Below are positions 49,990 to 64,000 of a DNA stretch of 64,000 bases, piece after piece. How positions within the stretch are numbered: position 1 is the stretch's first letter; every line of letters begins with the position of its first letter. The notes below the pieces were generated by a model, which was not told the DNA's origin, searched no databases, and was given only the letters and a program-made list of their open reading frames with translations. The stretch is from Pseudomonas fluorescens Q2-87 (GTDB lineage: Bacteria > Pseudomonadota > Gammaproteobacteria > Pseudomonadales > Pseudomonadaceae): NCBI RefSeq assembly GCF_000281895.1, contig NZ_CM001558.1:2422556-2486555 (forward strand), given 5' to 3'. A program made the translations under genes and the position numbers.

Positions 49990-50079
49990 CCCGCCGCGGC
50001 ACCACGCAGCTTCGCCTGGGCGTTGGCAGCATCAGCACCCAGGCTTGGCCACTTCGCAACGACACGGGAGTAGAGCCTC

Positions 50080-50868
50080 ATGAACAACGTCCGGATGGAT
50101 AACATCAGTTGGGTCGACTATGAACGTCGAGTGCAATCGGGGGCGGTGGTCTTGCTGCCCATCGGTGCCACGGAGCAGCACGGGCCCCATTTGCCCCTGG
50201 GCACCGATGCCTTGTTGGCCAGTGCAATCAGCGAAGACGTGGCCAGGGAAATCGGCGGCGTGGTAGCCCCGGCCTTGTCCTATGGCTATAAATCCCAGCC
50301 CAAATGCGGTGGTGGGCAGCACTTCTGCGGCACTACCAGCGTGGACGGTGCGACCCTGATCGCCATGGTTCGCGATGCCGTGCGCGAGTTTCATCGCCAT
50401 GGCGTGAAGCGTCTGGTCCTGGTGATCGGGCACTACGAAAACCAGTGGTTCGTGACCGAAGGCATCGAGCTGGCGATGCGTGACATCGGCGCGCAAGCGG
50501 GGCTGGAAGTCATGCGCCTTGAGCATTGGGAGTTCGTGAAATCGCAAACCCTGGACAGGATCTTCCCGAACGGCTTTCCGGGCATCGCGCTGGAGCACGC
50601 GGCGGTCATCGAGACGTCGATGATGCTGCACTATCACCCGGAGCTGGTGTGCCTGGAGAAGATTCCTGACCACGGGCCGGCTGAGTTCCCGGTCTATGAC
50701 ATGTACCCGACACGAACAGAATGGGTCCCGGCCAGTGGCGTGCTGTCCTCCGCGCTGGGGTCCAGCGCAGAGAAGGGACGCCTATTGGTGGTGGATGTGA
50801 TCAGTGGCATTGCCCAGGCCGTCCGATCAGAGTTCCGGCTTGCTGCGACTCTGCCGTCGCTCTTCTGA
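50080..50868 (+). CDS. Creatininase-family amidohydrolase (creatinine amidohydrolase-like)
   Basis: 262 aa, ATG at 50080 with GGGAG upstream. It closely resembles characterised Pseudomonas creatininase: metal motif GATEQHGPHLPLGTD (Glu32, His34, Asp43), YGYKSQPKCGGGQHFCGTTSVDGATL, and VIGHYENQWFVTEG with the second His/Glu pair. It hydrolyses the cyclic amide of creatinine to creatine, or a similar lactam. No creatinase or sarcosine oxidase gene is in the window, so either those lie elsewhere or the substrate differs. Same direction as the NCS1 permease and VOC genes. Confidence 0.87.
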   Translation: MNNVRMDNISWVDYERRVQSGAVVLLPIGATEQHGPHLPLGTDALLASAISEDVAREIGGVVAPALSYGYKSQPKCGGGQHFCGTTSVDGATLIAMVRDAVREFHRHGVKRLVLVIGHYENQWFVTEGIELAMRDIGAQAGLEVMRLEHWEFVKSQTLDRIFPNGFPGIALEHAAVIETSMMLHYHPELVCLEKIPDHGPAEFPVYDMYPTRTEWVPASGVLSSALGSSAEKGRLLVVDVISGIAQAVRSEFRLAATLPSLF

Positions 50869-51027
50869 GTGTCGACAGCTCCTGCCGCACTTCGGTGGTC
50901 ATGGATGAATGGGTCATGTGTTGCACTGTTCGCCACCGGACAGTTGATCAACAGCGTTGTCCCCGTGCAGGCATTTCCAATGGATGGGGTTATTATCTAA
51001 CCGACTGTATTTAAACGAATAATTACT

Positions 51028-51044
51028 TGGCATGAATCGTGTTG
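51028..51044 (+). promoter_or_regulatory. Weak sigma-54-like sequence before the LLM monooxygenase gene
   Basis: TTGGCATGAATCGTGTTG around 51028 keeps the -24 TGGCA block and 10-nt spacing, but has GT instead of GC at -12. About 60 nt upstream of the LLM start. The presence of a sigma-54 activator in the cluster makes it worth noting; it is not a consensus site. Confidence 0.3.
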
Positions 51045-51101: not shown

Positions 51102-52520
51102 ATGCCACGGGAAATTCGTTTGAATGCCTTCGAGATGAACTGTGTCGGTCATCAGTCGCCGGGTCTTTGGAGGCACCCCAAGGATCGTGCCTGGCAATAT
51201 AAGGATCTGGACTACTGGACCGACCTGGCCAAGCTGCTGGAGCGCGGCAAGTTCGACGGCATTTTCATTGCCGATGTGATCGGCATCTACGATGTGCTCG
51301 GCGGCAATGGCGATGCGGCCATCCGCCAGGCGACTCAGGTGCCGGTCAACGATCCGCTGGCGTTGATCACGCCGATGGCGCTGGTGACCGAACACCTGGG
51401 TTTCGGCCTGACTGCTTCGCTGACTTTCGAGCACCCGTATCCTTTCGCCCGCCGCCTCTCCACCCTGGACCACCTGACCAAGGGCCGCATCGGCTGGAAC
51501 ATCGTCACGTCCTACCTCGACAGCGGCGCGCGCAACCTCGGGCAAAAAGCCCTGAGCGACCACGACGCGCGTTACGACTACGCCGATGAATATCTGGAGG
51601 TGCTCTACAAGCTGTTCGAAGGCAGTTGGGAGGAGGGCGCCGTGGTGCGTGACCGCCAGCGCGGTATTTTCACTGACCCAAGCAAGGTTCACGAGATCCG
51701 TCACCAGGGCACGCATTTCCAGGTGCCGGGCATTCACCTTTGCGAGCCTTCGCCGCAACGCACGCCGGTGCTGTACCAGGCCGGGGCGTCGAGTCGCGGC
51801 AAGGACTTCGCCGCCGGGCACGCCGAGTGTGTATTCGTTGCCGCGCCGTCCAAGGTGATCCTCAAGAAGACCGTGGCGGATATCCGTCGTCGCGCCGCCG
51901 AGGCCGGGCGTGATCCGCGCAAAGTGCTGATCTTCAACCTGCAAACGGTGATCGTCGACGAGACCGACGCCAAGGCGCAGGCCAAATGGCAGGAGCTGAA
52001 ATCCTATAGCAGCTACGAGGGCGCATTGGCGCTGATCTCCGGCTGGACCGGCATTGACTTCGGGCAGTACCGACCCGACCAGGTGCTCAAGCACATCCAT
52101 ACCAACGCCATTCAATCGGCGGTGGAAACCTTTTCCACCGCCGACCCGGACAAGCAGTGGACCGTACAGGAACTGGCGGACTGGGTCGGCATCGGTGGTT
52201 TCGGGCCGTTGATTGTCGGCAGTGCGCAGACCGTGGCTGACGAGTTACAGGCCTGGGTCGAAGACACCGATGTGGACGGTTTCAACCTGGCTTATGTCCT
52301 GGCCCATGAAACCTTCAGCGACGTGGTCGAGTTGCTGGTGCCGGAGTTGCAAAAGCGCGGTGCCTACAAAACCGAATACCGCCCCGGCACCCTGCGCGAC
52401 AAGCTGTTCGGCGATGGACCGCGACTGCCGGCCAACCACCCTGGCGCGGGCTATCGGGACTTGGGCCGCAAGACCCCGCGGGCCAGCGTAGTTGAGCCGG
52501 CCTTGGCCGGCGAGGAGTAA
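51102..52520 (+). CDS. LLM-class flavin-dependent monooxygenase (NtaA/SnaA/DszA type)
   Basis: 472 aa, ATG at 51102 with AGGAG 6 nt upstream. A luciferase-like TIM barrel of the long (about 450 aa) NtaA/SnaA/DszA/SoxA branch: LNAFEMNCVGHQSPGLWRHP, AKLLERGKFDGIFIADVIGIYD, LSTLDHLTKGRIGWNIVTSYLDSGARNLG, and VLYQAGASSRGKDFAAGHAECVFV. These enzymes use FMNH2 from a separate reductase to cleave C-S or C-N bonds. It heads an operon with the AMP-ligase-like gene (4-nt gap) and the ABC transporter. The substrate is presumably an organosulfur compound, given SfnR, SfnB and SsuD-like genes nearby. No dedicated flavin reductase gene is seen in the window. Confidence 0.9.
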   Translation: MPREIRLNAFEMNCVGHQSPGLWRHPKDRAWQYKDLDYWTDLAKLLERGKFDGIFIADVIGIYDVLGGNGDAAIRQATQVPVNDPLALITPMALVTEHLGFGLTASLTFEHPYPFARRLSTLDHLTKGRIGWNIVTSYLDSGARNLGQKALSDHDARYDYADEYLEVLYKLFEGSWEEGAVVRDRQRGIFTDPSKVHEIRHQGTHFQVPGIHLCEPSPQRTPVLYQAGASSRGKDFAAGHAECVFVAAPSKVILKKTVADIRRRAAEAGRDPRKVLIFNLQTVIVDETDAKAQAKWQELKSYSSYEGALALISGWTGIDFGQYRPDQVLKHIHTNAIQSAVETFSTADPDKQWTVQELADWVGIGGFGPLIVGSAQTVADELQAWVEDTDVDGFNLAYVLAHETFSDVVELLVPELQKRGAYKTEYRPGTLRDKLFGDGPRLPANHPGAGYRDLGRKTPRASVVEPALAGEE

Positions 52521-52524
52521 CCGC

Positions 52525-53496
52525 ATGAGCATCTACGAACTCAATGCGCCGCTGCCCGACGTGGTCACCGACAGTGCCTTGGTGGCGTTGCAGCGCTGGG
52601 CCCGGGAACGGCCGACACAAATTGCCCTGCGTCATCGACGTCTCGGCGCGTGGAAGGCTTGGCGCTGGATCGATGTGCAGCGCGAGGTCGATCGCATGGC
52701 CGATGGTTTACGCCAGCAAGGCTTTGGCCCCGGTGCGCGACTGGCACTGAGCGGCGCTTTCGAACCGAGCCTGTTGATCCTGGCGCTGGCCGCCCGCCAA
52801 TTGGACGGGCACAGCCTGGTGATCGACCGCGACAGCCGCGGTGAAGATTTGCAACGACAGTTGCGCCTGGCTCGCCCGGCGTTTGCCTTCGTCCAGCATC
52901 GCGAGAGCGTGTCCCACTGGCTCAACTGCGGTCTGGATCAGCAGTGGCCGCTGCGGCTGTACTCAACCCAGGTCAACGCCGCCGCCAGCGGTTTATGGCA
53001 AGTGCAGTCGTTGTCGGTGCTGTTCGTCACGCAGGCGCCGCAGGCCCAGCGCCAGGGTTGGGCACAAGCCGCAGCAGACGAGGTGGTGTGGGTCGATGAA
53101 GGCACCGAGTGGCACGAGGGTCTGGGCCATTTGCTCAGCCGTTGGCTGGAGCATGGCGAAGGCCTGGCGTTTCCGGAGACCCGTGAATCGGCGAGCCGCG
53201 ACCGCCGCGAAATCGCCCCGACTGGCTTGCTGCTGTCCAGCGCACGTGTCGAGTCGCTGGCGGCGGAAATCGAAGCGCGCCTGCCACAGCAGGGCAGTTG
53301 GCAGCGGCGCCTGTGCGAATGGACCCTGATTGATCCGCGACGTGGTTTTCGCCGCTGGCTCAAGGCGCGGGTACGGCATCTGCTGGGCTTGCGGCGATTG
53401 CGTCGGATCGAGGTGCCGAGCGCGCCGGCCGGCGTCGCAGTGGGCAACCCGACACACCCATCCTGGTTGCATGAATACCTGGAGCGGGCGGCATGA
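52525..53496 (+). CDS. Truncated acyl-CoA-synthetase-like protein lacking the adenylation core
   Basis: 323 aa from the ATG at 52525, with GAGGAG upstream. The first 130 residues resemble the N-terminus of long-chain acyl-CoA synthetases (QIALRHRRLGAWKAWRWIDVQREVDRMADGLRQQGFGPGARLALSG; DSRGEDLQRQLRLARPAFAFVQH). The ATP-binding motif (YTSGTTGxPKG), the A8 region and the C-terminal lid are absent. The rest is Arg/Leu-rich (RWLKARVRHLLGLRRLRRIEV). It overlaps the ABC ATPase gene by 4 nt and so is expressed with it. It is either a degenerate ligase kept for a non-catalytic role in the importer complex or a decaying gene; the intact frame and tight coupling favour selection. Confidence 0.75.
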   Translation: MSIYELNAPLPDVVTDSALVALQRWARERPTQIALRHRRLGAWKAWRWIDVQREVDRMADGLRQQGFGPGARLALSGAFEPSLLILALAARQLDGHSLVIDRDSRGEDLQRQLRLARPAFAFVQHRESVSHWLNCGLDQQWPLRLYSTQVNAAASGLWQVQSLSVLFVTQAPQAQRQGWAQAAADEVVWVDEGTEWHEGLGHLLSRWLEHGEGLAFPETRESASRDRREIAPTGLLLSSARVESLAAEIEARLPQQGSWQRRLCEWTLIDPRRGFRRWLKARVRHLLGLRRLRRIEVPSAPAGVAVGNPTHPSWLHEYLERAA

Positions 53497-54263
53497 ATGC
53501 CTTGCTGGAGGTGCGTAACGTGTCGCTGTCGTTCAAAGGCGTAAAGGCGATTTCCGACCTTTCGTTCAGCGTGCGGCTGGGCGAAATCTGCGCGCTGATC
53601 GGGCCGAACGGTGCGGGCAAGAGTTCGCTGCTGAACATTCTCAACGGGGTCTACCGGGCCGATGCAGGACAGTTGTTCTTCGCGGCCGAGCCCCTGCGTC
53701 GGCCGCATCCGTTGAAGGCGGCCCGGCTCGGTATTGGCCGGACATTCCAGAACAATGCGCTGTTCAAGAAGATGAGCGTGGTGGACAACCTGCTCACCGG
53801 CCTGTCGCGTTTCCAGCGCACGTTCTTCCTTGAACAGGCGTTCGGCCTGCCGCGTGCCCGGCGGGAGGCGCGAACATTCGCCGAGCGTGCCGAGCGGGTG
53901 CTGGAGTTCCTCGAATTGCAGGCCTGGCGCGATGTCGCGGTGGGCAGCCTGGCCTACGGCCTGCAAAAGCGCGTGGAGCTGGGTCGGGCGCTGATTGCCC
54001 AGCCGACCCTGCTATTGCTCGACGAGCCGATGGCTGGGATGAACGCCGAGGAAAAACAGGAGATGAGTCGCTTCATCGCCGACGTCAATCGCGACCTGGG
54101 CACCACGGTGATTCTCATCGAGCACGACATTCAGGTGGTCATGGGGTTGTCCAGCCATGTGGTGGTGCTGGACTACGGACGCAAGGTCGGCGATGGCACG
54201 CCGGCTGAAGTCCAGGCCAATCCCGACGTGATCGCGGCCTATTTGGGGGCGCCTCGTCCATGA
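53493..54263 (+). CDS. ABC transporter ATP-binding protein, LivG-like
   Basis: 256 aa, ATGA overlap with the preceding gene. Walker A GPNGAGKSS near 38-46, LivG-type GIGRTFQNNALFKKMSVVDNLLTG, signature region LAYGLQKRVELGRAL, Walker B LLLLDEPMAGMN, and switch His in LIEHDIQVVM. It is one of two ATPases of a branched-chain amino-acid-type (HAAT) importer encoded here. Immediate overlap (4 nt) with the permease gene. Confidence 0.93.
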   Translation: MNALLEVRNVSLSFKGVKAISDLSFSVRLGEICALIGPNGAGKSSLLNILNGVYRADAGQLFFAAEPLRRPHPLKAARLGIGRTFQNNALFKKMSVVDNLLTGLSRFQRTFFLEQAFGLPRARREARTFAERAERVLEFLELQAWRDVAVGSLAYGLQKRVELGRALIAQPTLLLLDEPMAGMNAEEKQEMSRFIADVNRDLGTTVILIEHDIQVVMGLSSHVVVLDYGRKVGDGTPAEVQANPDVIAAYLGAPRP

Positions 54264-55141
54264 ACTTCTTTTTTGAAACCCTGATCGGCGGGCTGTTGGC
54301 CGGCACCATGTACTCTCTGGTCGCCATCGGCTTCGTGCTGATCTATAAGGCCAGTGGCGTGTTCAACTTCGCCCAGGGCGCCATGCTGTTGTTTGCCGCG
54401 CTGACCTTCGTCAGTTTGCGCGAGCAGGGCCTGTCGTTTGCCTTGGCGCTGGTCTTGACGGTGCTGGTGATGATCATCGGTGCGCTGCTGATCGAGCGGC
54501 TGGTGTTGCGGCCGCTGGTCAACCGTTCGCAGATCACCTTGTTCATGGCCACGCTCGGCCTGTCGTTCGTCATCGAAGGCCTGGCCCAGGGATTGATGGG
54601 CGCCCAGGTGCGCGCGTTGGACCTGGGCATCGAGGACGTCCCGCTGTTTGTCGGCGAGATCATGGTCAGCCAGTTCGACTTGATCGCCGCCGGAGTGTCG
54701 GCGCTGCTGGTGGCGGTGCTGGCCTTGCTGTTCAACAAGACGCGCATCGGTGTCGCCCTGCGCGCGGTGGCCGACGATACCCGTGCAGCGCTGTCGCTGG
54801 GCATCAACCTCAACCGCATCTGGCAGATCGTCTGGGCCGTGGCCGGGGTGGTCGGGCTGGTCGCCGGGTTGCTCTGGGGCGCACGCCAGGGCGTGCAGTT
54901 CTCGCTATCACTGGTGGTGCTCAAGGCGTTACCGGTGCTGATCATCGGTGGTTTCACCTCGATCGGCGGCGCTATCGTCGGCGGATTGATCGTCGGTGCG
55001 GCCGAGAACCTGGCCGAAGCCTATATCGGCCCGCTGGTTGGCGGAGGCATCACGCCCTGGTTTGCCTATTTCCTCGCGCTGATTTTTCTCTACATCCGCC
55101 CGGCCGGCCTGTTCGGCGACCGGGTCATCGAGCGGGTATGA
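54260..55141 (+). CDS. ABC transporter permease, LivH-like
   Basis: 293 aa, overlapping the ATPase gene by 4 nt. About eight membrane segments. The N-terminal LLAGTMYSLVAIGFVLIYKASGVFNFAQGAML is the LivH hallmark, as is the loop RIGVALRAVADDTRAALSLGINLNRIW near 170-196. It forms the inner-membrane channel with the LivM-like protein encoded 4 nt downstream. Confidence 0.94.
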   Translation: MNFFFETLIGGLLAGTMYSLVAIGFVLIYKASGVFNFAQGAMLLFAALTFVSLREQGLSFALALVLTVLVMIIGALLIERLVLRPLVNRSQITLFMATLGLSFVIEGLAQGLMGAQVRALDLGIEDVPLFVGEIMVSQFDLIAAGVSALLVAVLALLFNKTRIGVALRAVADDTRAALSLGINLNRIWQIVWAVAGVVGLVAGLLWGARQGVQFSLSLVVLKALPVLIIGGFTSIGGAIVGGLIVGAAENLAEAYIGPLVGGGITPWFAYFLALIFLYIRPAGLFGDRVIERV

Positions 55142-55145
55142 CCTT

Positions 55146-56204
55146 ATGACCAATCCTGTTGCGACCCTCAACGCCAGCTTCGATGAAGCACCGCTGACCC
55201 TCGTGCGTCGCCGCTGGCAACCCGGCTTGTTGGTCCTGCTGCTGGTGGCCTTCGTCGGGTTGCCTTGGTTGGGCAACGACTACTGGCTCAACGCGATTCT
55301 GATTCCTTTCCTGGTGCTGTCGCTGGCGGGCCTGGGGCTGAACTTGCTGACCGGCTACACCGGCCAGACGTCGGTGGGTGCGGCCGGCTTCATGGCCGTC
55401 GGCGCCTTCGCCACTTACGGCTTGCTCTTGCGGGTGCCAGGGCTGCCGCTGGCACTGATCGGCGGTGGCGTGATTGCCGGGCTGGTGGGGCTGGTGTTCG
55501 GCATACCCAGTTCGAGGATCAAGGGTTTCTACCTGATGGTTACCACGCTCGCCGCGCAGTTCTTCCTGGAATGGGTGTTCGCCAAGTTTCCCTGGTTCTA
55601 CAACTACGCTTCGTCCGGCACCATCAGTGCCCCGCGCCTGGAGCTGTTCGGCCACAACCTGAGCACCCCGGTCGGTCGCTACCTGTTGACCCTCAGTTGC
55701 GTGGTGCTGTTGACCTGGGTGGCGGTCAACCTGGTACGCAGCCAGGTCGGCCGCAACTGGATGGCGATCCGCGACATGGACACGGCGGCCGCCGTGATCG
55801 GCATTCCGGTGGAGCGCTACAAGCGCATGGCCTTCGCCGTCAGTTCCTTTTACCTGGGCGTCGCCGGGGCGCTCTGGGCGTTCGCCTACCTGGGCACGGC
55901 CAGTGCCAGCAGCTTCGACATCAACCGCTCGTTCCAGATTCTCTTCATCATCATTATCGGTGGCATGGGCAGCATAGCCGGCAGCTTCATCGGCGCCGCG
56001 TTCATCAGCCTGACGCCCATCCTGCTCAGCCATGCGGGGCTATGGCTGTTCAACGGCAACGTCGATGGCGGGCAATTGCAGAACCTGCAAAAAGTTCTCT
56101 TCGGCGGCTTGATCGTCTGGTTCCTGATCAGGGAGCCGGAAGGACTGGTGCGCCTGCTCGGCGACCTGCGCGAACGCATCAAGGCCTGGCCGCTGCGGTT
56201 CTGA
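55146..56204 (+). CDS. ABC transporter permease, LivM-like
   Basis: 352 aa, ATG at 55146, directly after the LivH-like gene. About nine membrane segments. LivM hallmarks: LTGYTGQTSVGAAGFMAVGAFATYGLL, IPSSRIKGFYLMVTTLAAQFF, and the cytoplasmic loop GRNWMAIRDMDTAAAVIGIPVERYKRMAFAVSSFYLGVAGAL. It is the second membrane subunit of the importer. Confidence 0.94.
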   Translation: MTNPVATLNASFDEAPLTLVRRRWQPGLLVLLLVAFVGLPWLGNDYWLNAILIPFLVLSLAGLGLNLLTGYTGQTSVGAAGFMAVGAFATYGLLLRVPGLPLALIGGGVIAGLVGLVFGIPSSRIKGFYLMVTTLAAQFFLEWVFAKFPWFYNYASSGTISAPRLELFGHNLSTPVGRYLLTLSCVVLLTWVAVNLVRSQVGRNWMAIRDMDTAAAVIGIPVERYKRMAFAVSSFYLGVAGALWAFAYLGTASASSFDINRSFQILFIIIIGGMGSIAGSFIGAAFISLTPILLSHAGLWLFNGNVDGGQLQNLQKVLFGGLIVWFLIREPEGLVRLLGDLRERIKAWPLRF

Positions 56205-56277
56205 TTTCAACTCACCCTGACGGACCTTGACCCAACCCTGGGAGAGGAGTCTCAACCTTTCATAAGAAGTGCATTCC

Positions 56278-57615
56278 ATGCGTAAAATCTTGCCTCGCTT
56301 GCTGTTTTCCAGCCTCTTCGTATTGGGTGCCCAGGCCCTGCTACCTGCCGCTACCCAGGCGGCGGCCAACCAGCAATTCTTCCCACTGGCCACCTACCGG
56401 GTCGGCGCCTATGCCTCCAGCGGCATCCCGGTTTGGGCCGGCATGATCGACTACCTGCGCTACATCAATGAGGTGGAAGGCGGCATCAACGGCGTAAAAC
56501 TGGTCTGGCAGGAATGCGAGACCGAATGGACGGCGGAGAAGGGCATCGAGTGCTACGAGCGCTTCAAGAACGGCCTCGATGGCGCACCCGTGGCGATCTA
56601 TTCGCCCAACGGCGCGCCGGCTGCCTATGCCCTCGCGGACAAGGCCGAAGCCGACAAGATTCCCTTGATCACCCTCGGCTACGGCCGTACCGAAGCCACC
56701 GATGGCCGGGTGTTTCCCTATAACTTCCCGGTCATGTTGACCTTCTACAGCGAAGCCTCGGCGTTCATCAATTACGTGGCCGAGCGCGAAGGCGGGTTCG
56801 ATAAGCTCAAGGGCAAGAAAATTGCCACGGTCTACCACGACTCCGCCTACGGCCGGGAAACCCAGGGACCGCTGGCGCTGCTGGCGCAGAAGTACGGCTT
56901 CGAAAACATCCAGATTCCGGTGGCTGATCCGGGCAATGAGCAGGCGGCGCAATGGCGCCAGGTGCGGCAGGTCAAGCCAGACTGGGTATTCCTGCGCACT
57001 TGGGGCGTGTCCACCCCGGTGGCGATCAAGACCGCGGCGCGGTTCGGCTTCCCGGTGGATCGCATCGTCGGCGACATCTGGGCCAGCTCCAACGAAGACG
57101 TGCTGCCGGCCGGTGAGGCGGGTAAGGGCTATTTGGCCCTGACGCCTTATCCGGGCGGCGCCGAGTTCGACATCCACCGGCGCATTCGTCAGTACATCCT
57201 CGATACCGGCAAGAGCGACCTCAAGGATCCGAAGAGCTTCGGCAGCGTGTACTACAACTCCGGCCTGGTGAACGCGGCCATCGCCGTCGAGGCGATCCGC
57301 ACCGGACAGAAGAAATTCGGCAATCGTCCACTCAACGGCGAAGAAGGCCGCTGGGGCCTGGAGCACCTTGATCTCAACGACGCGCGCCTCAAGGAGATCG
57401 GTTACCTGGGGCTGATGCAGCCGCTGAAGTTGTCATGCAGCGACCATGAGGGCGGTGGCGCGGCCAAGGTACAGCAGTGGGACGGCCAACAGTGGAAGCT
57501 GATCACCGACTGGGTCCAGGCCGATCGCGCCACGTTGCGTCCGTTGATCGACGCCAAGGCGGCCGAGTATGCGAAGGAAAAAGGTGTGACCGCCCGTGAT
57601 TGCGCAGCGCAGTAG
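56278..57615 (+). CDS. ABC transporter substrate-binding protein, LivJ/HAAT type
   Basis: 445 aa from the ATG at 56278 (MRKILPRLLFSSLFVLGAQA); a GTG lies 9 nt upstream. It has a Sec signal peptide with probable cleavage after ATQAAA near residue 30. The type I periplasmic-binding fold of the Leu/Ile/Val family is recognisable: ASSGIPVWAGMIDYLRYINEVEGGINGVKLVWQECET, and KGKKIATVYHDSAYGRETQGPLALLAQKYGF. It is longer than LivJ and similar to binding proteins of HAAT systems for urea, amides and aromatic acids. It gives the importer its specificity; the ligand is unknown, possibly a sulfur-containing organic acid. Confidence 0.92.
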   Translation: MRKILPRLLFSSLFVLGAQALLPAATQAAANQQFFPLATYRVGAYASSGIPVWAGMIDYLRYINEVEGGINGVKLVWQECETEWTAEKGIECYERFKNGLDGAPVAIYSPNGAPAAYALADKAEADKIPLITLGYGRTEATDGRVFPYNFPVMLTFYSEASAFINYVAEREGGFDKLKGKKIATVYHDSAYGRETQGPLALLAQKYGFENIQIPVADPGNEQAAQWRQVRQVKPDWVFLRTWGVSTPVAIKTAARFGFPVDRIVGDIWASSNEDVLPAGEAGKGYLALTPYPGGAEFDIHRRIRQYILDTGKSDLKDPKSFGSVYYNSGLVNAAIAVEAIRTGQKKFGNRPLNGEEGRWGLEHLDLNDARLKEIGYLGLMQPLKLSCSDHEGGGAAKVQQWDGQQWKLITDWVQADRATLRPLIDAKAAEYAKEKGVTARDCAAQ

Positions 57616-57678
57616 GCAGCGCATGCTTGGAAAATCCAAAGACAACCGGGCGCCAGTGCGCCCAAGGGGTAGGAAACA

Positions 57679-58455
57679 ATGACCAGTGCGATCCTTCCTG
57701 TCACCCAGGGCAACGAGTTGCTGGCGGTAGACGACATCGAAGTGATTTACGACGGCGCGATCCTCGCCGTGGCCGGGGTTTCCCTGCGGGTCGGACAGGG
57801 CGATATCGTTGCTCTGCTTGGCGCCAATGGGGCCGGCAAGAGCACCACGCTCAAGGCCATCTCCGGGCTGGTCCAGGCCGACCGGGCGCAAGTCAGCCGG
57901 GGCCATATCCACTTCCAGGGCCGCGACACTGCCGGCGTGGCGGCCAATGTGCTGGCCCGCCAGGGCATCGTCCATGTCCTGGAAGGCCGGCATGTGTTCG
58001 CCCACCTGACCGTCGAGGACAACTTGCGCAGCGGCGGCTTCCTGCGCAAGCCGACGCGACGTGAGCTGGAGCAGGACCTGGAGCGCATCTATGCCTGGTT
58101 CCCACGCCTGAAGACCAAGCGCAAGACCCAGGCCGGGCTGACGTCGGGCGGCGAACAGCAGATGCTCGCCATCGGCCGCGCCTTGATGACCCATCCGCGC
58201 CTGGTGTTGTTGGACGAGCCTTCGATGGGCCTGGCGCCGATCCTGGTCGAGGAGATCTTCGCCATCGTCGCTCAGCTCAATGCCCAAGAGGGCATGAGCT
58301 TTCTCATCGCTGAGCAAAACATCAATGTCGCGCTGCGCCACGCCAGCTACGCCTACATCCTGGAAAACGGCCGGGTGGTAGGCGAGGGTGGCGGGGCCGA
58401 GCTGGCGGCGCGGGAGGATATCCAGCATTTCTATTTGGGAGGCAAGGCCGGTTGA
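57679..58455 (+). CDS. ABC transporter ATP-binding protein, LivF-like
   Basis: 258 aa, ATG at 57679 with AGGAAA 5 nt upstream. Walker A GANGAGKSTT, LivF-type IVHVLEGRHVFAHLTVEDNLRSG, signature LTSGGEQQMLAIGRAL (intact), Walker B LVLLDEPSMGLAP, and switch Gln/His region LIAEQNINVALRHA. It is the second ATPase of the importer and the last gene of the transport operon. 63 nt separate it from the binding-protein gene. Confidence 0.93.
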   Translation: MTSAILPVTQGNELLAVDDIEVIYDGAILAVAGVSLRVGQGDIVALLGANGAGKSTTLKAISGLVQADRAQVSRGHIHFQGRDTAGVAANVLARQGIVHVLEGRHVFAHLTVEDNLRSGGFLRKPTRRELEQDLERIYAWFPRLKTKRKTQAGLTSGGEQQMLAIGRALMTHPRLVLLDEPSMGLAPILVEEIFAIVAQLNAQEGMSFLIAEQNINVALRHASYAYILENGRVVGEGGGAELAAREDIQHFYLGGKAG

Positions 58456-58571
58456 TGCGTGACCGACGCACTGTTTGCCCGGCAACAGCGAATCTGCAAT
58501 TTGCCGCTCCAGAGGCTTTTTCGTGTTGTTGATTGTCTTTCAACCAATTGAAAACAAAGGATTTTATAGGT

Positions 58572-58587
58572 TGGTACGGGCTGTGCT
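58572..58587 (+). promoter_or_regulatory. Sigma-54 (-24/-12) promoter of the SfnB-like gene
   Basis: TGGTACGGGCTGTGCT has GG at 58573-58574 and GC at 58585-58586, exactly ten bases between, and near-consensus surroundings (TGGYACG-N4-NTGCT). It lies about 37 nt before the ATG at 58624. The SfnR-like activator encoded at 62475-63578 is the obvious partner. Confidence 0.85.
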
Positions 58588-58623
58588 TAGGCCTAGGAGA
58601 ACCCGTTACGCATGGAGTAGCAC

Positions 58624-59856
58624 ATGACCCAGTCAACGATTTTGGACTTGCCCCAACAGGCCCGCCCGGCGCCCCGCAGCCCGGCCCATATCATCCGCAG
58701 CGACGCCGAGGCCATTGAGGTGGCGCAGCGTCTGGCCGAGGATTTCGCTCGCGAAGCGGCGCTGCGCGATCGTGAGCGGCGCCTGCCTTGGGACGAACTC
58801 GAGCGTTTTTCCCAGAGCGGATTTTGGGCGATCACTGTGCCGAAAGCCTACGGTGGCGCTGGGGTGTCCTATGTCACCCTCAGTGAGGTCATCGCTACCA
58901 TCTCTGCGGCCGATTCGTCCCTTGGCCAGTTGCCGCAAAACCATTTGGGCGTGCTCAGCAACCTCGGCCTGACCGGCAGCGAGGAGCAGAAGCAACGCTA
59001 TTACGCCAAGGTGCTGCAAGGCTATCGCTTCGGCAATGCCTTCTCCGAGGCGCGCAGCCAATACGTCACCACGTTCCAGACGCAGATCCGTTTCGACGCT
59101 GACACGGCGGTACTCGACGGCGAGAAGGCCTACTGCACTGGGGCGCTGTTCGCTCATATCGTCCCGGTTGCCGGGGTGGACGAGGCGGGTCATGTGCACA
59201 TCGCATTGGTTGCGCGCGACGCGGCGGGCCTGACGGTGCTCGACACCTGGGATGGTTTTGGCCAGCGAATCACCGCCAGCGGCCAGGTGCGCATCGAAGG
59301 CGTACGGGTGCCTGCCAGCGATGTGGTGCCGGCCGGCAAGGCCTATGAGCAACCCACCGCCGACGGCCCGATCTCGCAAATCATCCAGGCCGCGGTCGAC
59401 ACCGGCATTGCCCGTGGCGCTTTTGCCGAGACCTTGCGCGTCGCCCGCCAGGCACGTCCGTGGGTGGACAGTGGCCTGCAACACGGCTGGCAGGACCCCC
59501 TTGGGCAAGCGCTGATCGGTGAGCTGGCCTGGCGCCTGCAAGCGGCCGAGGCGATTTTGCATCGTGCGGCACAGGCAGTCGACCGTGCCGTCGCCGAACC
59601 CACCGAGGAGCGGGTCGCCGAAGCGTCGGTTATCGTCGGCCAGGCCAAGGTGCTCTCTACGGAAATTTCCCTGGAAGCCTCCAGCCGCCTGCTGGAGCTG
59701 GGCGGCACGCGCAGCGTCTCGGCCAGTCAAGGCCTGGACCGTTTCTGGCGCAACGCGCGGACCCACACCCTGCATGACCCGGTGCGTTGGAAATATCACC
59801 TGGTGGGCAACCAGCTTCTCAACGGCGTCAAGCCGCAACGTCATTCCTGGAACTGA
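58624..59856 (+). CDS. sfnB: SfnB-family sulfur acquisition oxidoreductase (acyl-CoA dehydrogenase-like)
   Basis: 410 aa, ATG at 58624 with GGAG upstream. Acyl-CoA dehydrogenase fold of the DszC/SfnB flavin-monooxygenase branch: ERFSQSGFWAITVPKAYGGAGVSYVTLSEV, SSLGQLPQNHLGVL, FGNAFSEARSQYVTTFQT, SRLLELGGTRSVSASQGLDRFWRNARTHTLHDPVRWKYH. SfnB proteins take part in sulfur scavenging from dimethylsulfone and related compounds in P. putida. The catalytic acyl-CoA dehydrogenase Glu is not evident, in keeping with a monooxygenase-like role. It is transcribed from a clear sigma-54 promoter. Confidence 0.88.
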   Translation: MTQSTILDLPQQARPAPRSPAHIIRSDAEAIEVAQRLAEDFAREAALRDRERRLPWDELERFSQSGFWAITVPKAYGGAGVSYVTLSEVIATISAADSSLGQLPQNHLGVLSNLGLTGSEEQKQRYYAKVLQGYRFGNAFSEARSQYVTTFQTQIRFDADTAVLDGEKAYCTGALFAHIVPVAGVDEAGHVHIALVARDAAGLTVLDTWDGFGQRITASGQVRIEGVRVPASDVVPAGKAYEQPTADGPISQIIQAAVDTGIARGAFAETLRVARQARPWVDSGLQHGWQDPLGQALIGELAWRLQAAEAILHRAAQAVDRAVAEPTEERVAEASVIVGQAKVLSTEISLEASSRLLELGGTRSVSASQGLDRFWRNARTHTLHDPVRWKYHLVGNQLLNGVKPQRHSWN

Positions 59857-59866
59857 GGTATCGAGC

Positions 59867-60259
59867 ATGTCCAACGTACATTCTCAAGGTCGCAGCGACC
59901 TGGCCCATGCCCGTCATGTCGAGGCGGCACTGCTTGAATACCTGCGCGGGCAGAGTGCTCGTCACGAGGCGCTGGTGATCGCCGCGGTCGGCGAACTGCG
60001 CATCCGCATCGACGCCGCCGATGCCTTGCTTGAACGCGCCGACCAGTCCCAGTCAGCGGCGATTGCCTTTCGCTTGGCGGCGGCCGAGGCGGCGCGCCTG
60101 TCCGGCCATCTTTACTTCGAACTGGCCGGCCGTAGCCTGCCGCGACCGCTGCCGGACAGCGCCGAACCGGCGCTGCTGACCCAGCGTCGGCTGTTGGGGG
60201 ATCATTACCTCAATGGCGCGGCGTTGGCTGATGGGCAAGAAGCTGGATCGAACGGATGA
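59867..60259 (+). CDS. Small helical protein resembling an acyl-CoA dehydrogenase C-terminal domain
   Basis: 130 aa from the ATG at 59867 (MSNVHSQGRSDLAHARH), with GAGG 8 nt upstream; it begins 10 nt after the SfnB-like gene, so the two are co-transcribed. The sequence is almost all helix, Ala/Leu/Arg-rich (VEAALLEYLRGQSARHEALVIAAVGELRIRIDAADALLERAD; AAEAARLSGHLYFELAGRS). Its pattern recalls the C-terminal four-helix bundle of acyl-CoA dehydrogenases without the FAD-binding parts. It may be a partner subunit. I do not recognise a named family. Confidence 0.7.
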   Translation: MSNVHSQGRSDLAHARHVEAALLEYLRGQSARHEALVIAAVGELRIRIDAADALLERADQSQSAAIAFRLAAAEAARLSGHLYFELAGRSLPRPLPDSAEPALLTQRRLLGDHYLNGAALADGQEAGSNG

Positions 60260-60283
60260 AGCATCCAGATTGAGACCGTATGC

Positions 60284-60323
60284 GCCACAGGGGATTTGCG
60301 TCCAACGCATCCCCCCCTGTGGC
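60284..60323. terminator. Large hairpin between convergent sulfur-cluster genes
   Basis: GCCACAGGGGAT...GCG (60284-60300) pairs with CGCATCCCC...CTGTGGC (60306-60323). It lies between the convergent small helical protein gene and the amidohydrolase gene. A second inverted repeat (GAGCTTGCGCAAGCGACCTC) follows. Terminator or REP-like. Confidence 0.6.
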
Positions 60324-60348
60324 ACGAGCTTGCGCAAGCGACCTCGCT

Positions 60349-61197
60349 TCAGCTCAGGCCGAATAACCTTCGTGCGTTACCGTGGAAAAACTTCTCCAGC
60401 GCCTCGTCCTTCAACCCCAGTTGCAGGGCGTCTTCGATGCTCTGACGGATCGGGCGGAAGGTGTAGGACGAGCCAAACAGCAACTGATCGGCCAGGTAAC
60501 CATTGGCGGCCTGCACGTAACCCTCACTCCCCGGCAGGAACAGGTACATGTCCGGCACCAGGTGAACGTTTTCGTAGCGGAACGCGATGCCGAGGGCCTG
60601 TTGCACATTGGGCCAATAGCCGTGATAGACGACGATCGCCAAGTCCGGGAATGCGCGGGCGACCGCGGCCAGGCGCGCCGGGTCGTTATAGGTTGGGTTC
60701 GGCGTGGTCGGCCCGCTCATCAGGAACAACGGGATGCCGCGCTTTTGCAGGTGCTCGTAGATCGGCCAGTACAGCGCATCGTCGGGATGCCGGGCCGGTT
60801 CGGCGAAGCCCGGTTCCAGGTCGATGCCGGCCAGGCCCAGCGAGTCGATGGCCCGGTCGATTTCTGCCAGGGCGCCTTCGATGCCCTGTAGCACCGGCTC
60901 CACCGCGCCGATGCCGATCAGTGATGCATGACCGTGGACGATTTCGTGGATGCGCTCATTGGGCAGATGCTGCCCCGGGGTGTGGCGCCCGACCACCACG
61001 GCTTTGTCCAGCCCGGCATCACGCACCTCGGCGAGAAAACCCTGTGGGGTCAGCGAACGCTCGAAATGATCATCCGCGCCGCGGGTGCCGACGCGCCGAT
61101 TGAGCCAGCGCGCCACGTCATGCTCGGGCGAGCCCGGGACGCCACCGAAGAAAGGATGCAGGTAGGCCGGGCGACAGCGCAGGTCGATGATTTTCAT
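60349..61197 (-). CDS. Amidohydrolase_2-like protein without the usual metal ligands
   Basis: 282 aa, ATG at 61197 overlapping the SsuD-like stop by 4 nt. The metal-dependent hydrolase TIM barrel is recognisable from its strand order and the ending [14 protein letters not shown]. However, the N-terminal HxH is Arg7-Cys-Arg9 (IDLRCRP), the His after strand 5 is missing (FLMSGPT), and the final Asp is Ser244 (FGSSYTF, usually GSDxPF). Only His192 (VVYHGYW) remains. It may be a non-metal enzyme or a binding protein. Coupling to the SsuD-like gene ties it to organosulfur use. Confidence 0.8.
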
Positions 61198-62324
61198 GCG
61201 ACTTTCTCCTGGCCGGCACGCACATCGAAGGCGCCGCCGGTGAAGGCGCCATCCACGGTGACCTTGCCTTTGCCCGGCAGCAACGGAAACACCAGCTCGG
61301 CAAAGCGGTACGCCTCTTCCAGATGTGGGTAGCCGGACAGTACGAAGCTGTCGACGCCCAGGTCGGCGTATTCCTGCAGGCGCGCGGCGACGGTTTCTGG
61401 ATCGCCCACCAGGGCTGTGCCGGCACCGCCACGTACCAGGCCGACGCCGGCCCAGAGGTTAGGCGCCACTTCCAGCTGGTTGCGATCACCGCCATGCAGC
61501 GCGGCCATGCGCCGCTGGCCTTCGGAGTCCATTTTGGCGTAGTTGGCCTGGGCGGCGGCGACAGTGGCGTCATCGAGGTGGCTGATCAGTTCATCGGCGG
61601 CGGCCCAAGCGGCTTCGCTGGTTTCCCGCACGATCACATGCAGGCGCACGCCGAAGCGCACGCTGCGGCCATGCCTGGCGGCGCGGGCGCGCACGTCGGC
61701 GATTTTCTCGGCCACGGCCGCCGGTGGTTCGCCCCAGGTGAGGTAGGCATCGACATGCTTGGCGGCCAGCTCGTGGGCGGCCTCGGACGAGCCGCCGAAG
61801 TACAGCGGCGGATAGGGCTTTTGCAAGGGGGCGAAGAAATTCTGTGCGCCCCGGACCTTCAGATGCTTGCCGTCGAAGTCGACGGTTTCGCCTTGCAGCA
61901 GGCGGCGCCAGATGGTCAGGAACTCATCGGAGGCTTCGTAGCGCTCATCGTGGGCAAGGAACACACCGTCGGCTTGCAGTTCGGTAGCGTCGCCGCCGGG
62001 AACCACGTTGAGCAGCAGGCGACCGCCGCTGGCCTGGTCCAGGCTGGCGGCCTGGCGCGCCGAGGCGGTGGGGTTGCCGAGCGACGTGCGCAGCGCCACC
62101 AGCAGCTTGATGCGCTGGGTCACTGGAACCAGGCTGGCGGCGGTCACCCAGGGATCGAGGCAACTGGCACCGGTGGGAATCAGCAGGCCGTCGTAGCCGA
62201 GCTGGTCGGCGGCCACGGCGATTTGCCGCATATAGGCGTTGGTCGCCGGTCGGCCACTGCCGGAATGCCCCAAGTAACGGGTATCGCCGGAGGTGGGAAG
62301 GAACCAGAAAATATCCAGGCTCAT
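61194..62324 (-). CDS. ssuD: SsuD/MsuD-like FMNH2-dependent alkanesulfonate monooxygenase
   Basis: 376 aa from the ATG at 62324 ([19 protein letters not shown]), with AAGGA upstream; the frame is open earlier without likeness. It is very close to Ssu[20 protein letters not shown] (Cys55 at the SsuD Cys54 position), [94 protein letters not shown]. It desulfonates alkanesulfonates to aldehyde and sulfite, using FMNH2 from a separate reductase not encoded here. It is slightly shorter at the C-terminus than SsuD. MsuD (methanesulfonate) is an alternative name. Operon with the amidohydrolase-like gene. Confidence 0.9.
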
Positions 62325-62354
62325 GGGGTTTGATCCTTTTGCTGTTGGGAGTCT

Positions 62355-62375
62355 GGAAGGGCGCTGGGCCCTTCC
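62355..62375. terminator. Hairpin between sfnR and the SsuD-like gene
   Basis: GGAAGGGC, loop GCTGG, GCCCTTCC: a perfect 8-bp stem located 31-51 nt upstream of the SsuD-like start and 100 nt after the sfnR stop (both on the minus strand). No T-run follows. It may end sfnR transcription or act in the leader. Confidence 0.5.
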
Positions 62376-62474
62376 GGTATCGCAACGCTTGGCATTTTGG
62401 AAGGGTTGGCCGGTCACCCTGTGGCTACGGCTGGGGCCGTTGCGGCGGGCGGGGCATTGCCCGGTTTTTTGTTA

Positions 62475-63578
62475 TCAGATCGACAATTGAATGGCCCGGG
62501 TGGGCCGTTCCTGGGTGTCCGGGCGGCGGCGATTGACCACCAATTCGCCAATGGCGATCAGGCGTGCGCGGGTGACGTTGCGACTGAGGCCAAGCAGGTT
62601 GGCGGTGCGCACCTGGTTGCAGTGGCAAAAGCGGTAGGCGGCCCGCAGCAGGCTGTCTTCGACTTTCTCGTGAAGGCCGCCGGACTGTTCTTCGAACAAT
62701 CGGTGAAAGGTCCGCAATAACTGTTCATCGGCGCTTTCGCCGGCGCTTGCCTGTGGCTGTTCCTGGCGTTCGATGCGGATCGGCGACAGGCGCAGGTCGT
62801 CTTCCTGCACCAGGCCGTTGCGGCACACCAGAAGGGTGTGGTGGAGGACATTCTCCAGCTCGCGGATGTTGCCTGGCCAGCTGTAGTCCACCAGTTTGCG
62901 CTCGGCCTGCGGGGTCAGGCGTACTTCGCCGTAGCCCAGGCGCTGGCAGTAGGTTTTGATGAAGTGGCGCGTCAGCGGCACGATGTCGCCCGGTCGCTCG
63001 CGCAGTGGATAGAGTTGCAGACTCACCACATCGAGGCGGTAGTAGAGGTCTTCGCGAAAGTTGCCGGCACTGATGGCCTTGTCCAGTTGCACGTTGGTGG
63101 CAGCGACCACGCGCACGTTGATCGCAATGCTCTTGCGTGAACCCAGGCGCACCACCTCGCGTTCCTGCAACACACGCAGCAACTTGACCTGGATGGCCAT
63201 GGGCAAGTCGCCGATCTCGTCGAGGAATAGGGTTCCGCCGTTGGCTTCCTCGAACCAGCCGGCCTTGGCGGCGAGGGCACCGGTGAACGCGCCTTTTTCA
63301 TGGCCGAACAGCTCCGCCTCTACCAGCGATTCGGAGAACGCACCGCAGTTGACCGCGACAAAGGGACCGTTGCGCCGGCCGCTGAGGTTGTGGATGTGGC
63401 GTGCGACCAGCTCCTTGCCCGTGCCTGTCTCGCCAATGATCAGGACGCTGGCCTCACTGGGGGCGACCTGTTGCACGTGAGCGAGAAGCGCCTGCGATCT
63501 AGGGTCTTCGAAGACCTGCGCGGTCGCCCGGATCGAGGTGGCCAATGTCGGCGAAGGTGGAAGGGTCAGCAGTTGCAT
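62475..63578 (-). CDS. sfnR: SfnR-like sigma-54-dependent transcriptional activator
   Basis: 367 aa from the ATG at 63578 (MQLLTLPPSPTLA), with AGGGA 5 nt upstream. An AAA+ enhancer-binding protein with no N-terminal sensory domain: Walker A GETGTGKE (49-56), sigma-54 contact loop GAFTGA (96-101), Walker B GGTLFLDEIGDLP, Arg-finger region FREDLYYRLDVVSLQLYPLRER. The C-terminal Fis-type HTH is QVRTANLLGLSRNVTRARL. Lack of a receiver or GAF domain is typical of SfnR, which is itself made only under sulfur starvation and activates sfn genes. Its likely target is the -24/-12 promoter at 58572. It starts 9 nt after the partial gene upstream. Confidence 0.92.
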   Translation of the reverse strand: MQLLTLPPSPTLATSIRATAQVFEDPRSQALLAHVQQVAPSEASVLIIGETGTGKELVARHIHNLSGRRNGPFVAVNCGAFSESLVEAELFGHEKGAFTGALAAKAGWFEEANGGTLFLDEIGDLPMAIQVKLLRVLQEREVVRLGSRKSIAINVRVVAATNVQLDKAISAGNFREDLYYRLDVVSLQLYPLRERPGDIVPLTRHFIKTYCQRLGYGEVRLTPQAERKLVDYSWPGNIRELENVLHHTLLVCRNGLVQEDDLRLSPIRIERQEQPQASAGESADEQLLRTFHRLFEEQSGGLHEKVEDSLLRAAYRFCHCNQVRTANLLGLSRNVTRARLIAIGELVVNRRRPDTQERPTRAIQLSI

Positions 63579-63586
63579 GGGCATCC

Positions 63587-64000
63587 CTATGAGTAGAAGG
63601 AGGGGGTGGGCCGCGTCTGGCTCAGCGCCCATTCACCCAGTTCGTGGAGTTTGTAATCCACCGGATCGTGCAGGCTCTGGGTGCGCAGGTTGCGCCAGTG
63701 GCGGTCCAGGCGCAGCGACGCATGGGTGGCGCGGGCGCCGGTGACTTCGAACAGGCGGCTGCAAATGTCCAGGCCGGTGCGCACGGCAGCGACCTTGGCG
63801 GTGGCGATGGACAGCGCCAGTTGCGCGCGTTCCTCGGCGCCCAGGGCATGGCCCTTGTTCCAAGCGGCATCGAGCTGCTCGGCGGCGCGTTCCACCAGCA
63901 GGCGCACCCCCTCCAGGCCGACCCAGAACTCGCCGAAGTGGCGCAAAATGTACGGGTCTTCGCTGACATGCTGGGCCTTGGAGCGGAACCACGGTCGACC
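63587..64000 (-). CDS. Acyl-CoA dehydrogenase/DszC-like monooxygenase (3' part, cut by the right edge)
   Basis: The frame is open from the window edge to the stop at 63587, giving about 137 residues. It is the C-terminal helical domain of an acyl-CoA-dehydrogenase-like flavoprotein: RPWFRSKAQHVSEDPYILRHFGEFWVGLEGVRLLVERAA, ALSIATAKVAAVRTGLDICSRLFEVTGARATHASLRLDRHWRNLRTQSLHDPVDYK. It resembles SfnB/DszC-type enzymes and is distinct from the SfnB-like protein at 58624. The stop lies 9 nt before sfnR, so the two are probably co-transcribed. The true start is outside the window. Confidence 0.85.
   Translation of the reverse strand, partial: GRPWFRSKAQHVSEDPYILRHFGEFWVGLEGVRLLVERAAEQLDAAWNKGHALGAEERAQLALSIATAKVAAVRTGLDICSRLFEVTGARATHASLRLDRHWRNLRTQSLHDPVDYKLHELGEWALSQTRPTPSFYS

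What the first reader, a model, noticed from the sequence alone, without database searches (positions are those of the whole stretch)
51102..64000. Sulfur-acquisition island built around a complete branched-chain-amino-acid-type importer
Seen: one strand carries an LLM monooxygenase, AMP-ligase fragment, LivG/H/M-like proteins, a large periplasmic binding protein and LivF, followed by an SfnB-like gene with a sigma-54 promoter and a small helical protein. The other strand carries an SfnR-like activator, an SsuD-like monooxygenase, an atypical amidohydrolase and a second DszC-like flavoprotein. Known: Pseudomonas sulfonate and sulfate-ester uptake uses SsuABC, AtsRBC or TauABC importers, which are not Liv-type. 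Inference: the set imports and desulfurises a bulkier organosulfur acid or amide (for example a sulfur-containing amino-acid conjugate or thioester/sulfonamide) through a route I cannot match to a described pathway.
Basis: partly seen in the sequence, partly recalled or inferred. Interest (0 to 1): 0.75.

Follow-up and report, generated by a model that had tools for sequence, protein, structure and literature searches.

The report
Sulfur-starvation importer with dead ligase partner
A soil Pseudomonas carries a gene cluster, apparently built to be made when sulfate runs out, that pairs a transporter of the amino-acid-importer type with enzymes that strip sulfur from small organic molecules, and it may supply the still-missing uptake system for compounds such as dimethyl sulfone.

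Summary
The sulfur role is well supported by sequence; the proposed substrate and the "unmatched pathway" are not. The minus strand is the known msuE-msuC-sfnR-msuD route, plus an amidohydrolase. The plus strand is a conserved cassette (DmoA-like LLM, AMP-fragment, LivGHM, binding protein, LivF, SfnB, small helical protein); of 80 relatives examined, 71 show the LLM and 70 SfnB. Evidence for sulfur: conserved sigma-54 elements and a shared CTGTTG-N6-CAACAG palindrome; strong Cys/Met depletion (1.36% against 3.68% in flanking ORFs); and a paralogous set directly downstream of sfnFG, the dimethyl-sulfone genes, in the same genome. Of 119 congeners 26 have this binding protein, and all 26 have SfnG (54 of 119 overall). 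Two oddities are real: the "AMP-ligase fragment" is a conserved pseudo-ligase where distant cassettes have full-length ligases, and the small protein is a stand-alone acyl-CoA-dehydrogenase C-terminal domain without Cys or Met. Best reading: an SfnR-regulated importer for small sulfones, sulfoxides or related compounds. A paper states that dimethyl-sulfone transporters are uncharacterised. The substrate is unproven; predicted ABC transporters in the P. putida sfn region are mentioned in print.

The parts
50926..50954 (+). candidate activator site upstream of the LLM operon (CTGTTCGCCACCGGACAG followed by TTGATCAACAG)
   Evidence: alignment of upstream regions; one search lists 50926-50943 with 3 mismatches to the sfnB form
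51028..51043 (+). sigma-54-like -24/-12 element of the LLM-Liv operon (TGGCATGAATCGTGTT); the -12 GC reads GT here
   Evidence: same position in most aligned relatives (not L009); in L013 and L023 the -12 element reads GC
51102..52520 (+). LLM flavin monooxygenase, NtaA/DmoA family
   Evidence: TIGR03860 570 bits; best solved relative is dimethyl-sulfide monooxygenase 6ak1, 554 bits
52525..53496 (+). pseudo-acyl-CoA-synthetase (AMPf), 323 aa, catalytic motifs and C-terminal half absent
53493..54263 (+). LivG-type ATPase; start overlaps the end of the pseudo-ligase
54260..55141 (+). LivH-type permease
   Evidence: PF02653
55146..56204 (+). LivM-type permease
   Evidence: PF02653
56269..57615 (+). 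periplasmic binding protein, Peripla_BP_6
   Evidence: close relative solved as PDB 4ru0, 836 bits
57679..58455 (+). LivF-type ATPase
58471..58488 (+). palindromic upstream site CTGTTTGCCCGGCAACAG before sfnB
58572..58587 (+). sigma-54 element of sfnB (TGGTACGGGCTGTGCT)
58624..59856 (+). SfnB-family group D (acyl-CoA-dehydrogenase-fold) oxidoreductase
   Evidence: TIGR04022 606 bits, cut-off 431; 1 Cys, no Met beyond the start in 409 residues
   Evidence: no Cys or Met beyond the start
60349..61197 (-). amidohydrolase (Amidohydro_2), overlaps the end of the msuD-like gene
   Evidence: relative 3irs, 159 bits
61194..62324 (-). MsuD/SsuD alkanesulfonate monooxygenase
   Evidence: TIGR03565 607 bits; 7jv3 567 bits against E. 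coli SsuD 536 bits
62475..63584 (-). SfnR-type sigma-54 activator (named by domain and place; not compared with a known SfnR sequence)
   Evidence: Sigma54_activat; no dedicated SfnR model among the hits
63587..64000 (-). MsuC-like (methanesulfinate monooxygenase), cut by the window end; continues to about 64789, followed by an MsuE-like FMN reductase
   Evidence: 6u76 728 bits; MsuE TIGR03566 255 bits, cut-off 212.5

Best explanation
The plus-strand cassette is a sulfate-starvation importer and desulfurisation unit. Shown: gene content, conservation, sigma-54 and palindrome architecture, sulfur-sparing composition, and a paralogous cassette behind sfnFG. Inferred: when sulfate is short, SfnR with sigma-54 switches on the Liv operon, sfnB and msuE-msuC-sfnR-msuD-amidohydrolase. 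The binding protein captures a small organosulfur compound, most likely neutral or weakly polar (a sulfone, sulfoxide or related dialkyl compound, dimethyl sulfone or a homologue), and LivHM with LivG/LivF bring it in. SfnB, of the fold of enzymes that oxidise sulfides in two steps, takes it to the sulfone; the DmoA-like LLM cuts the C-S bond to a sulfinate; MsuC makes the sulfonate; MsuD releases sulfite; MsuE supplies FMNH2. The pseudo-ligase is a former acyl-CoA synthetase of the ancestral cassette that kept a non-catalytic part, perhaps one that docks on LivG, after the substrate ceased to be a carboxylic acid. The small helical protein is a detached C-terminal domain that probably partners SfnB. 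Confidence is about 0.93 for the sulfur-starvation role, 0.75 for import of an organosulfur source by this Liv set, and 0.45 for the sulfone/sulfoxide class. The number given is for the statement taken as a whole with its details allowed to vary.
For: Conservation: of 80 relatives (the best 80 of 166 confirmed) LivH, LivM and LivF in 80, LivG 79, AMPf 78, LLM 71, SfnB 70 at the thresholds (loci). Regulation: palindrome upstream of sfnB/LLM in 62 of 71 loci, 71 sites against 4.0 expected from the rest of the loci; in 53 of 59 loci not used to draw the motif; sigma-54 element before sfnB in 47 of 68; the stricter 15-base form has exactly 3 perfect matches in 6.37 Mb, before sfnB, before msuE, and between sfnF and a divergent DszC-like gene. 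Sulfur sparing: nine plus-strand proteins hold 40 Cys+Met in 2933 residues (1.36%); 0 of 100,000 random sets of nine of 50 flanking ORFs were as low (lowest 2.16%); other Liv-type ORFs of this genome (L001, L003, L005, L007, leaving out one opposite-strand ORF at 9.44%) run 2.35-4.84%. Paralogue MsuE-SfnG-AMPf2-LivG-LivH-LivM-SBP2 at L117. All 26 congeners with the binding protein have SfnG against 54 of 119 overall, hypergeometric 1.6e-11. Pseudo-ligase dN/dS 0.12-0.19 in 5 of 6 comparisons.
Against: No ligand, expression or growth data. 28 of 54 SfnG genomes lack the binding protein at the threshold used, so it is not required wherever SfnG is. The sfnFG-linked cassette has no LivF in this genome. 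The palindrome is missing in 9 of 71 loci, among them L019-L021 and L024 (MAGs, two of them titled Malikia and beta proteobacterium) and Azotobacter L025. With one mismatch the palindrome occurs 39 times genome-wide against 29 for the reversed pattern, and the stricter form with two mismatches shows no excess over its control, so alone it is not specific. The sigma-54 scan of the region gives 109 sites against 58-68 in five shuffles, so a site by itself means little. LivG is hardly sulfur-poor in the relatives (2.94% against 3.02% in other ORFs). The LLM is nearly as close to an alkane monooxygenase (511 bits). The msu/sfnR half is adjacent in few relatives. The co-occurrence test ignores phylogeny.
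Confidence: 0.5

Rival explanations
1. The set imports a larger organosulfur acid, amide or conjugate, which the amidohydrolase and the LLM then open.
For: The binding protein (448 aa) is longer than its 343-position Pfam profile; an amidohydrolase overlaps msuD; distant related cassettes carry a full-length acyl-CoA ligase, so the ancestor may have handled a carboxylic acid.
Against: The ligase has lost its catalytic motifs in this lineage; the amidohydrolase is with msuD, not in the Liv operon, and no relative of it was found in the fetched stretches of the 80 loci; the paralogous cassette is behind sfnFG.
Confidence: 0.25
2. The importer takes up sulfonates or sulfinates (methanesulfonate, methanesulfinate or longer), feeding MsuC/MsuD directly.
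For: MsuC and MsuD are next door in this genome.
Against: Only 4 of 80 relatives show an SfnR of at least 60% in the fetched stretch, 4 MsuC and 3 MsuD, whereas 71 show the LLM; sulfonates have known Ssu-type importers (established knowledge, not tested here).
Confidence: 0.12
3. An ordinary branched-chain amino acid, amide or urea importer with a nitrogen or carbon role that happens to lie among sulfur genes.
For: Fold and subunit set are those of Liv/Urt importers.
Against: The four membrane and ATPase subunits fall well below the curated Liv and Urt cut-offs; sulfur-sparing composition; shared palindrome and sigma-54 architecture; conserved linkage to LLM and SfnB.
Confidence: 0.04
4. The AMP fragment and the small helical protein are decaying pseudogenes with no role.
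For: Both are truncated forms of larger enzymes; the fragment evolves faster than its neighbours; in L082 it is broken into two frames.
Against: In 79 of 80 loci the AMPf match lies in one frame (three of these reach the contig end and are partial), and a stand-alone small-protein gene is found in 62 of 80; dN/dS mostly 0.08-0.19; Cys+Met is 0.73% on average in 24 AMPf members and zero in all 30 small-protein members, against 3.46% in 10 full-length ligases.
Confidence: 0.05

Closest known systems
sfn cluster of Pseudomonas putida (sfnFG, sfnECR, sfnAB)
   Same: MsuE-type reductase with group C and group D flavin monooxygenases and a sigma-54 activator; the legend of Fig. 1 of PMC8234197 (seen as a passage) says the P. 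[quoted passage not shown] The order sfnE-sfnC-sfnR is recalled and comes from no call.
   Different: Here the importer is identified as Liv-type, complete, with a pseudo-ligase and its own DmoA-like LLM; a second set lies behind sfnFG. The papers seen give no function for these transporters.
msuEDC with sfnR of Pseudomonas (methanesulfonate use)
   Same: MsuE, MsuC and MsuD matches; SfnR by domain and place.
   Different: Order is msuE-msuC-sfnR-msuD, plus an amidohydrolase.
Liv/HAAT importers with an adjacent acyl-CoA ligase (ligase-LivGHM-SBP-LivF)
   Same: Same order and subunits; a full-length ligase next to LivG in 11 of 17 distant regions fetched.
   Different: Ligase reduced to a non-catalytic fragment; flavin monooxygenases and sulfur-sparing composition added.
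DmoA, dimethyl-sulfide monooxygenase
   Same: Closest solved relative of the LLM (554 bits).
   Different: Activity untested; the alkane monooxygenase 3b9n is only slightly further off (511 bits).
Dms1-3 of Acinetobacter baylyi ADP1 (PMC13352529, sections and passages read)
   Same: Group D flavin monooxygenases that oxidise DMS to DMSO and dimethyl sulfone, with MsuE as reductase.
   Different: Orthology of SfnB here to Dms1-3 was not tested; their sequences were not fetched.

Membership tests
Liv/HAAT-type ABC importer | two Liv-type ATPases, two BPD_transp_2 permeases, Peripla_BP_6 binding protein | tested here: met
High-affinity branched-chain amino acid importer LivFGHMJ (equivalog level) | scores above the curated NCBIfam cut-offs | tested here: not met
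   LivG 231.9 of 362, LivH 77 of 379, LivM 85.9 of 366, LivF 224.1 of 441; binding protein no hit
Liv/HAAT-type ABC importer | substrate is an amino acid, amide or urea | not testable with these tools
   needs ligand binding
SfnB family sulfur-acquisition oxidoreductase | TIGR04022 above cut-off | tested here: met
   606 bits, cut-off 430.9
SfnR regulon | sigma-54 element with an upstream palindrome, conserved | tested here: met
   that the palindrome is SfnR's site is inferred
SfnR regulon | SfnR-dependent induction under sulfate starvation | not testable with these tools
   expression data needed
SfnR | sequence match to a characterised SfnR | not tested
   no SfnR model or sequence was at hand; sigma-54 activator domain only
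msu desulfonation route | MsuE, MsuC and MsuD matches | tested here: met
   MsuE 255 of 212.5; MsuC 6u76 728 bits; MsuD/SsuD 607 of 518, 7jv3 567 bits
DmoA dimethyl-sulfide monooxygenase | NtaA/DmoA subfamily | tested here: met
   TIGR03860 570 bits, cut-off 279.7
DmoA dimethyl-sulfide monooxygenase | DMS cleavage activity | not testable with these tools
   enzyme assay needed
ANL acyl-CoA synthetase (AMPf) | ANL fold, N-terminal part | tested here: met
ANL acyl-CoA synthetase (AMPf) | phosphate-binding motif TSGTTG-x-PKG, YGxTE motif and C-terminal half (motif names recalled) | tested here: not met
   0 of 80 ORFs with either motif; alignment to 9 full-length ligases
Acyl-CoA dehydrogenase fold (small helical protein) | homology to the C-terminal domain | tested here: met
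   family HMM hits SfnB C-termini, e.g. residues 284-427 of the L021 SfnB; Pfam Acyl-CoA_dh_1/2 in 17/14 of 30 members at E up to 1, but not in the window's own member; Foldseek top rows are ACADs, with best E only 0.4
Acyl-CoA dehydrogenase fold (small helical protein) | flavin-binding N-terminal and middle domains | tested here: not met
   130 aa, five helices and no strands in the model

The most novel reading that the evidence does not exclude
This is the missing uptake system for dimethyl sulfone and related sulfones or sulfoxides: a Liv-type importer that arose from a carboxylate-importing cassette with an acyl-CoA ligase. When the substrate changed, the ligase lost its catalytic half but was kept as a dedicated, nearly sulfur-free structural subunit of the importer, and a detached acyl-CoA-dehydrogenase C-terminal domain became a subunit of SfnB.
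Probability: 0.35. Interest if true: 0.78.

Novelty: new variant of a known kind. Interest (0 to 1): 0.6.

Why it matters
PMC8234197 (figure legend) states that transporters for dimethyl sulfone have yet to be characterised. This cassette, with its sfnFG-linked paralogue and a relative of the binding protein already solved (4ru0), makes that question directly testable. It would also be an unusual case of a metabolic enzyme reduced to a non-catalytic importer partner, with selection against sulfur amino acids as a readable mark of when the protein is made.

Tried and rejected
A nitrogen/carbon importer was considered and set aside on composition, regulation and linkage. The palindrome in its relaxed form was tested genome-wide and is not specific. 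The sigma-54 scan alone was uninformative. A search for papers on PDB 4ru0 listed 20 of 29, none on a protein by title. Literature searches (listings, the listed titles only) showed no study of the importer's function; passages were read in PMC10256816, PMC12581299 and PMC10949508 and do not describe it. One search, on the low-sulfur-protein principle, gave no source that I used, so that principle is stated from established knowledge. The LivG comparison with L010 was dropped because no LivG orthologue was found there and the hit is a paralogue. The binding pocket was not analysed. Foldseek E-values for the small helical protein are weak, so its assignment rests on the HMM match.
Full report
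What is there. The window lies at 2,422,556-2,486,555 of a single 6.37 Mb contig. The plus strand from 51102 reads LLM, AMP-fragment, LivG, LivH, LivM, binding protein, LivF, then sfnB with its own sigma-54 element and a 130-aa protein; the minus strand holds amidohydrolase, MsuD/SsuD, a sigma-54 activator and a DszC-like gene that leaves the window. The next stretch of chromosome completes that gene (728 bits to MsuC 6u76) and adds an MsuE-type FMN reductase (255 bits, cut-off 212.5). In order of transcription the minus strand is msuE, msuC, sfnR, msuD, amidohydrolase. SfnR is named by its domain and place; it was not compared with a characterised SfnR. MsuC and MsuD are described enzymes (PMC8234197, passages seen; PMC13352529, abstract and outline, passages, sections 18, 19, 22 and 29).

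Conservation. One scan for the binding protein in genome contigs gave 166 confirmed relatives, of which the best 80 were kept. At the thresholds, LivH, LivM and LivF are present in 80 of 80, LivG in 79, AMPf in 78, the LLM in 71 and SfnB in 70. Seven of the ten loci without SfnB and seven of the nine without LLM are stretches that begin less than 4.1 kb before the binding protein (positions); the others are L024, L065 and L074 for SfnB and L017 and L074 for the LLM. The 80 include Azotobacter, Azomonas, Zoogloea, Malikia and Ideonella by record title. In many Pseudomonas the order is sfnB, small protein, LLM, AMPf, LivGHM, binding protein, LivF; in the window sfnB and the small protein are last. 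Fifteen of 80 have two or three binding-protein genes in the fetched stretch, mostly in tandem. An SfnR of at least 60% identity is within the fetched stretch in only 4 of 80, so the two halves of the island are usually separate.

Regulation. Sigma-54-like elements lie 52 nt before sfnB, 74 nt before the LLM and shortly before msuE. A comparable element lies within 67 nt of the aligned sfnB start in 47 of 68 relatives. A palindrome CTGTTG-N6-CAACAG (at least 10 of 12 matches) lies upstream of sfnB or the LLM in 62 of 71 loci, 71 sites against 4.0 expected from the rest of the loci. Twelve of the 71 had been in the alignments from which the motif was drawn: 9 of those 12 and 53 of the other 59 have a site; the nine without are L017, L019-L022, L024-L026 and L028. 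The stricter form ACTGTNNGCNNGGCAACAG, drawn from the sfnB and msuE sites, has exactly three perfect matches in the genome: those two and one at 2,844,179, between sfnF of the second locus and a divergent DszC-like gene. With 15 fixed bases and even base composition about 0.01 chance sites are expected (my own arithmetic). Against this, with up to two mismatches there is no excess over the reversed pattern (17 against 23), and the relaxed palindrome gives 39 sites against 29 for its control. That SfnR binds it is inferred; there is a second SfnR-like activator, 77% identical, in the genome.

Sulfur sparing. Proteins made under sulfur starvation tend to avoid Cys and Met (established knowledge, no source from a call). 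The nine plus-strand proteins have 40 Cys+Met in 2933 residues, 1.36% without start Met; 50 flanking ORFs, picked mechanically, average 3.68%, and none of 100,000 random sets of nine was as low. SfnB has one, the small protein and MsuE none. In the relatives the means are SfnB 0.31% (69 sequences), AMPf 0.58% (76), LLM 1.44% (70), LivM 1.61%, LivF 2.02%, binding protein 2.04%, LivH 2.09% (80 each) and LivG 2.94% (79), against 3.02% in 415 other ORFs; LivG is thus hardly depleted. All 30 examined members of the small protein have none beyond the start; 10 full-length ligases average 3.46% (one of the ten, from L143, is not from a Liv cassette). Other Liv-type ORFs of this genome run 2.35-4.84% (L001, L003, L005, L007, leaving out one opposite-strand ORF at 9.44%).

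A sister cassette behind sfnFG. At 2.84 Mb the same genome has an MsuE-type reductase (249 bits, cut-off 212.5), SfnG (628 bits, cut-off 383), an AMPf paralogue, LivG, LivH, LivM and a binding protein 58% identical, without LivF. In 119 congeners (our own included) 26 have the binding protein, of either type, and 54 have SfnG; all 26 are among the 54, 11.8 expected, hypergeometric 1.6e-11, phylogeny ignored; 28 SfnG genomes lack it. In 7 of the 26 the two lie within about 7 kb (read). Two further genomes of one distant genus (L142, L143) have a relative of the binding protein without detected Liv genes, near a sigma-54 activator and a DmoA-like LLM or SfnG/SfnF-like genes.

The small helical protein. 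Its family HMM finds stand-alone genes in 62 of 80 loci and the C-terminal domain of SfnB. dN/dS is 0.08-0.13 in five comparisons, 0.34 for L015. Pfam sees the ACAD C-terminal domain in 17 of 30 members at E up to 1, not in the window's own. The model is a helical bundle (pLDDT 86) whose top Foldseek rows are ACADs at weak E-values.

Mechanism. The best reading, import of a small sulfone/sulfoxide-type compound followed by SfnB, LLM, MsuC and MsuD to sulfite, is inferred from family roles. PMC13352529 reports that group D enzymes of Acinetobacter oxidise DMS to dimethyl sulfone and that MsuE supplies all monooxygenases of that pathway; whether SfnB here is their orthologue was not tested. PMC8234197 says in a legend that transporters for dimethyl sulfone have yet to be characterised and that the P. 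putida sfn region contains predicted ABC transporters; no paper listed or 53 appeared, by title, to test them. Two papers likely to bear on it were not held and not read.

Noticed in passing
L117:4770-13483 (own genome, 2.84 Mb): sfnFG operon followed by an AMPf paralogue, LivGHM and a binding protein but no LivF; it may borrow LivF from the window's cassette.
   Followed up: partly
L118:4887-8835 (own genome, 6.06 Mb): Two SfnB-family genes in tandem followed by a second LLM of the NtaA/DmoA family (52% identical), near other ABC genes.
   Followed up: no
L011-L018, L021-L026, L029: Two or three binding-protein genes per fetched stretch in 15 of 80 relatives, the extra tandem copy about 70% identical to the window's: one importer may serve two ligands.
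   Followed up: no
L142:4012-10074 and L143:7112-12959: Relatives of the binding protein without detected Liv genes, beside a sigma-54 activator with a receiver-like start (judged by eye) and LLM or SfnG/SfnF-like genes: perhaps a sensor or shared receptor.
   Followed up: partly
L139:13260-15132 and L141:13253-15269: Full-length ligases of related cassettes whose P-loop motif deviates from the consensus: possible intermediates toward the pseudo-ligase.
   Followed up: partly
window 60349-61197 (-): Amidohydrolase whose start reads IDLRCRP where an HxH metal motif would be expected (motif recalled); related to 3irs of unknown function.
   Followed up: no
window 49438-50868 (+): Glyoxalase-like and creatininase-like genes directly upstream of the LLM operon; whether they belong to it was not tested.
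   Followed up: no
own genome 2621821-2622918 (-): Second SfnR-like activator, 77% identical to the window's.
   Followed up: no
L010: No LivG orthologue of at least 45% found in an otherwise complete cassette; not checked whether it is a break or an assembly fault.
   Followed up: no
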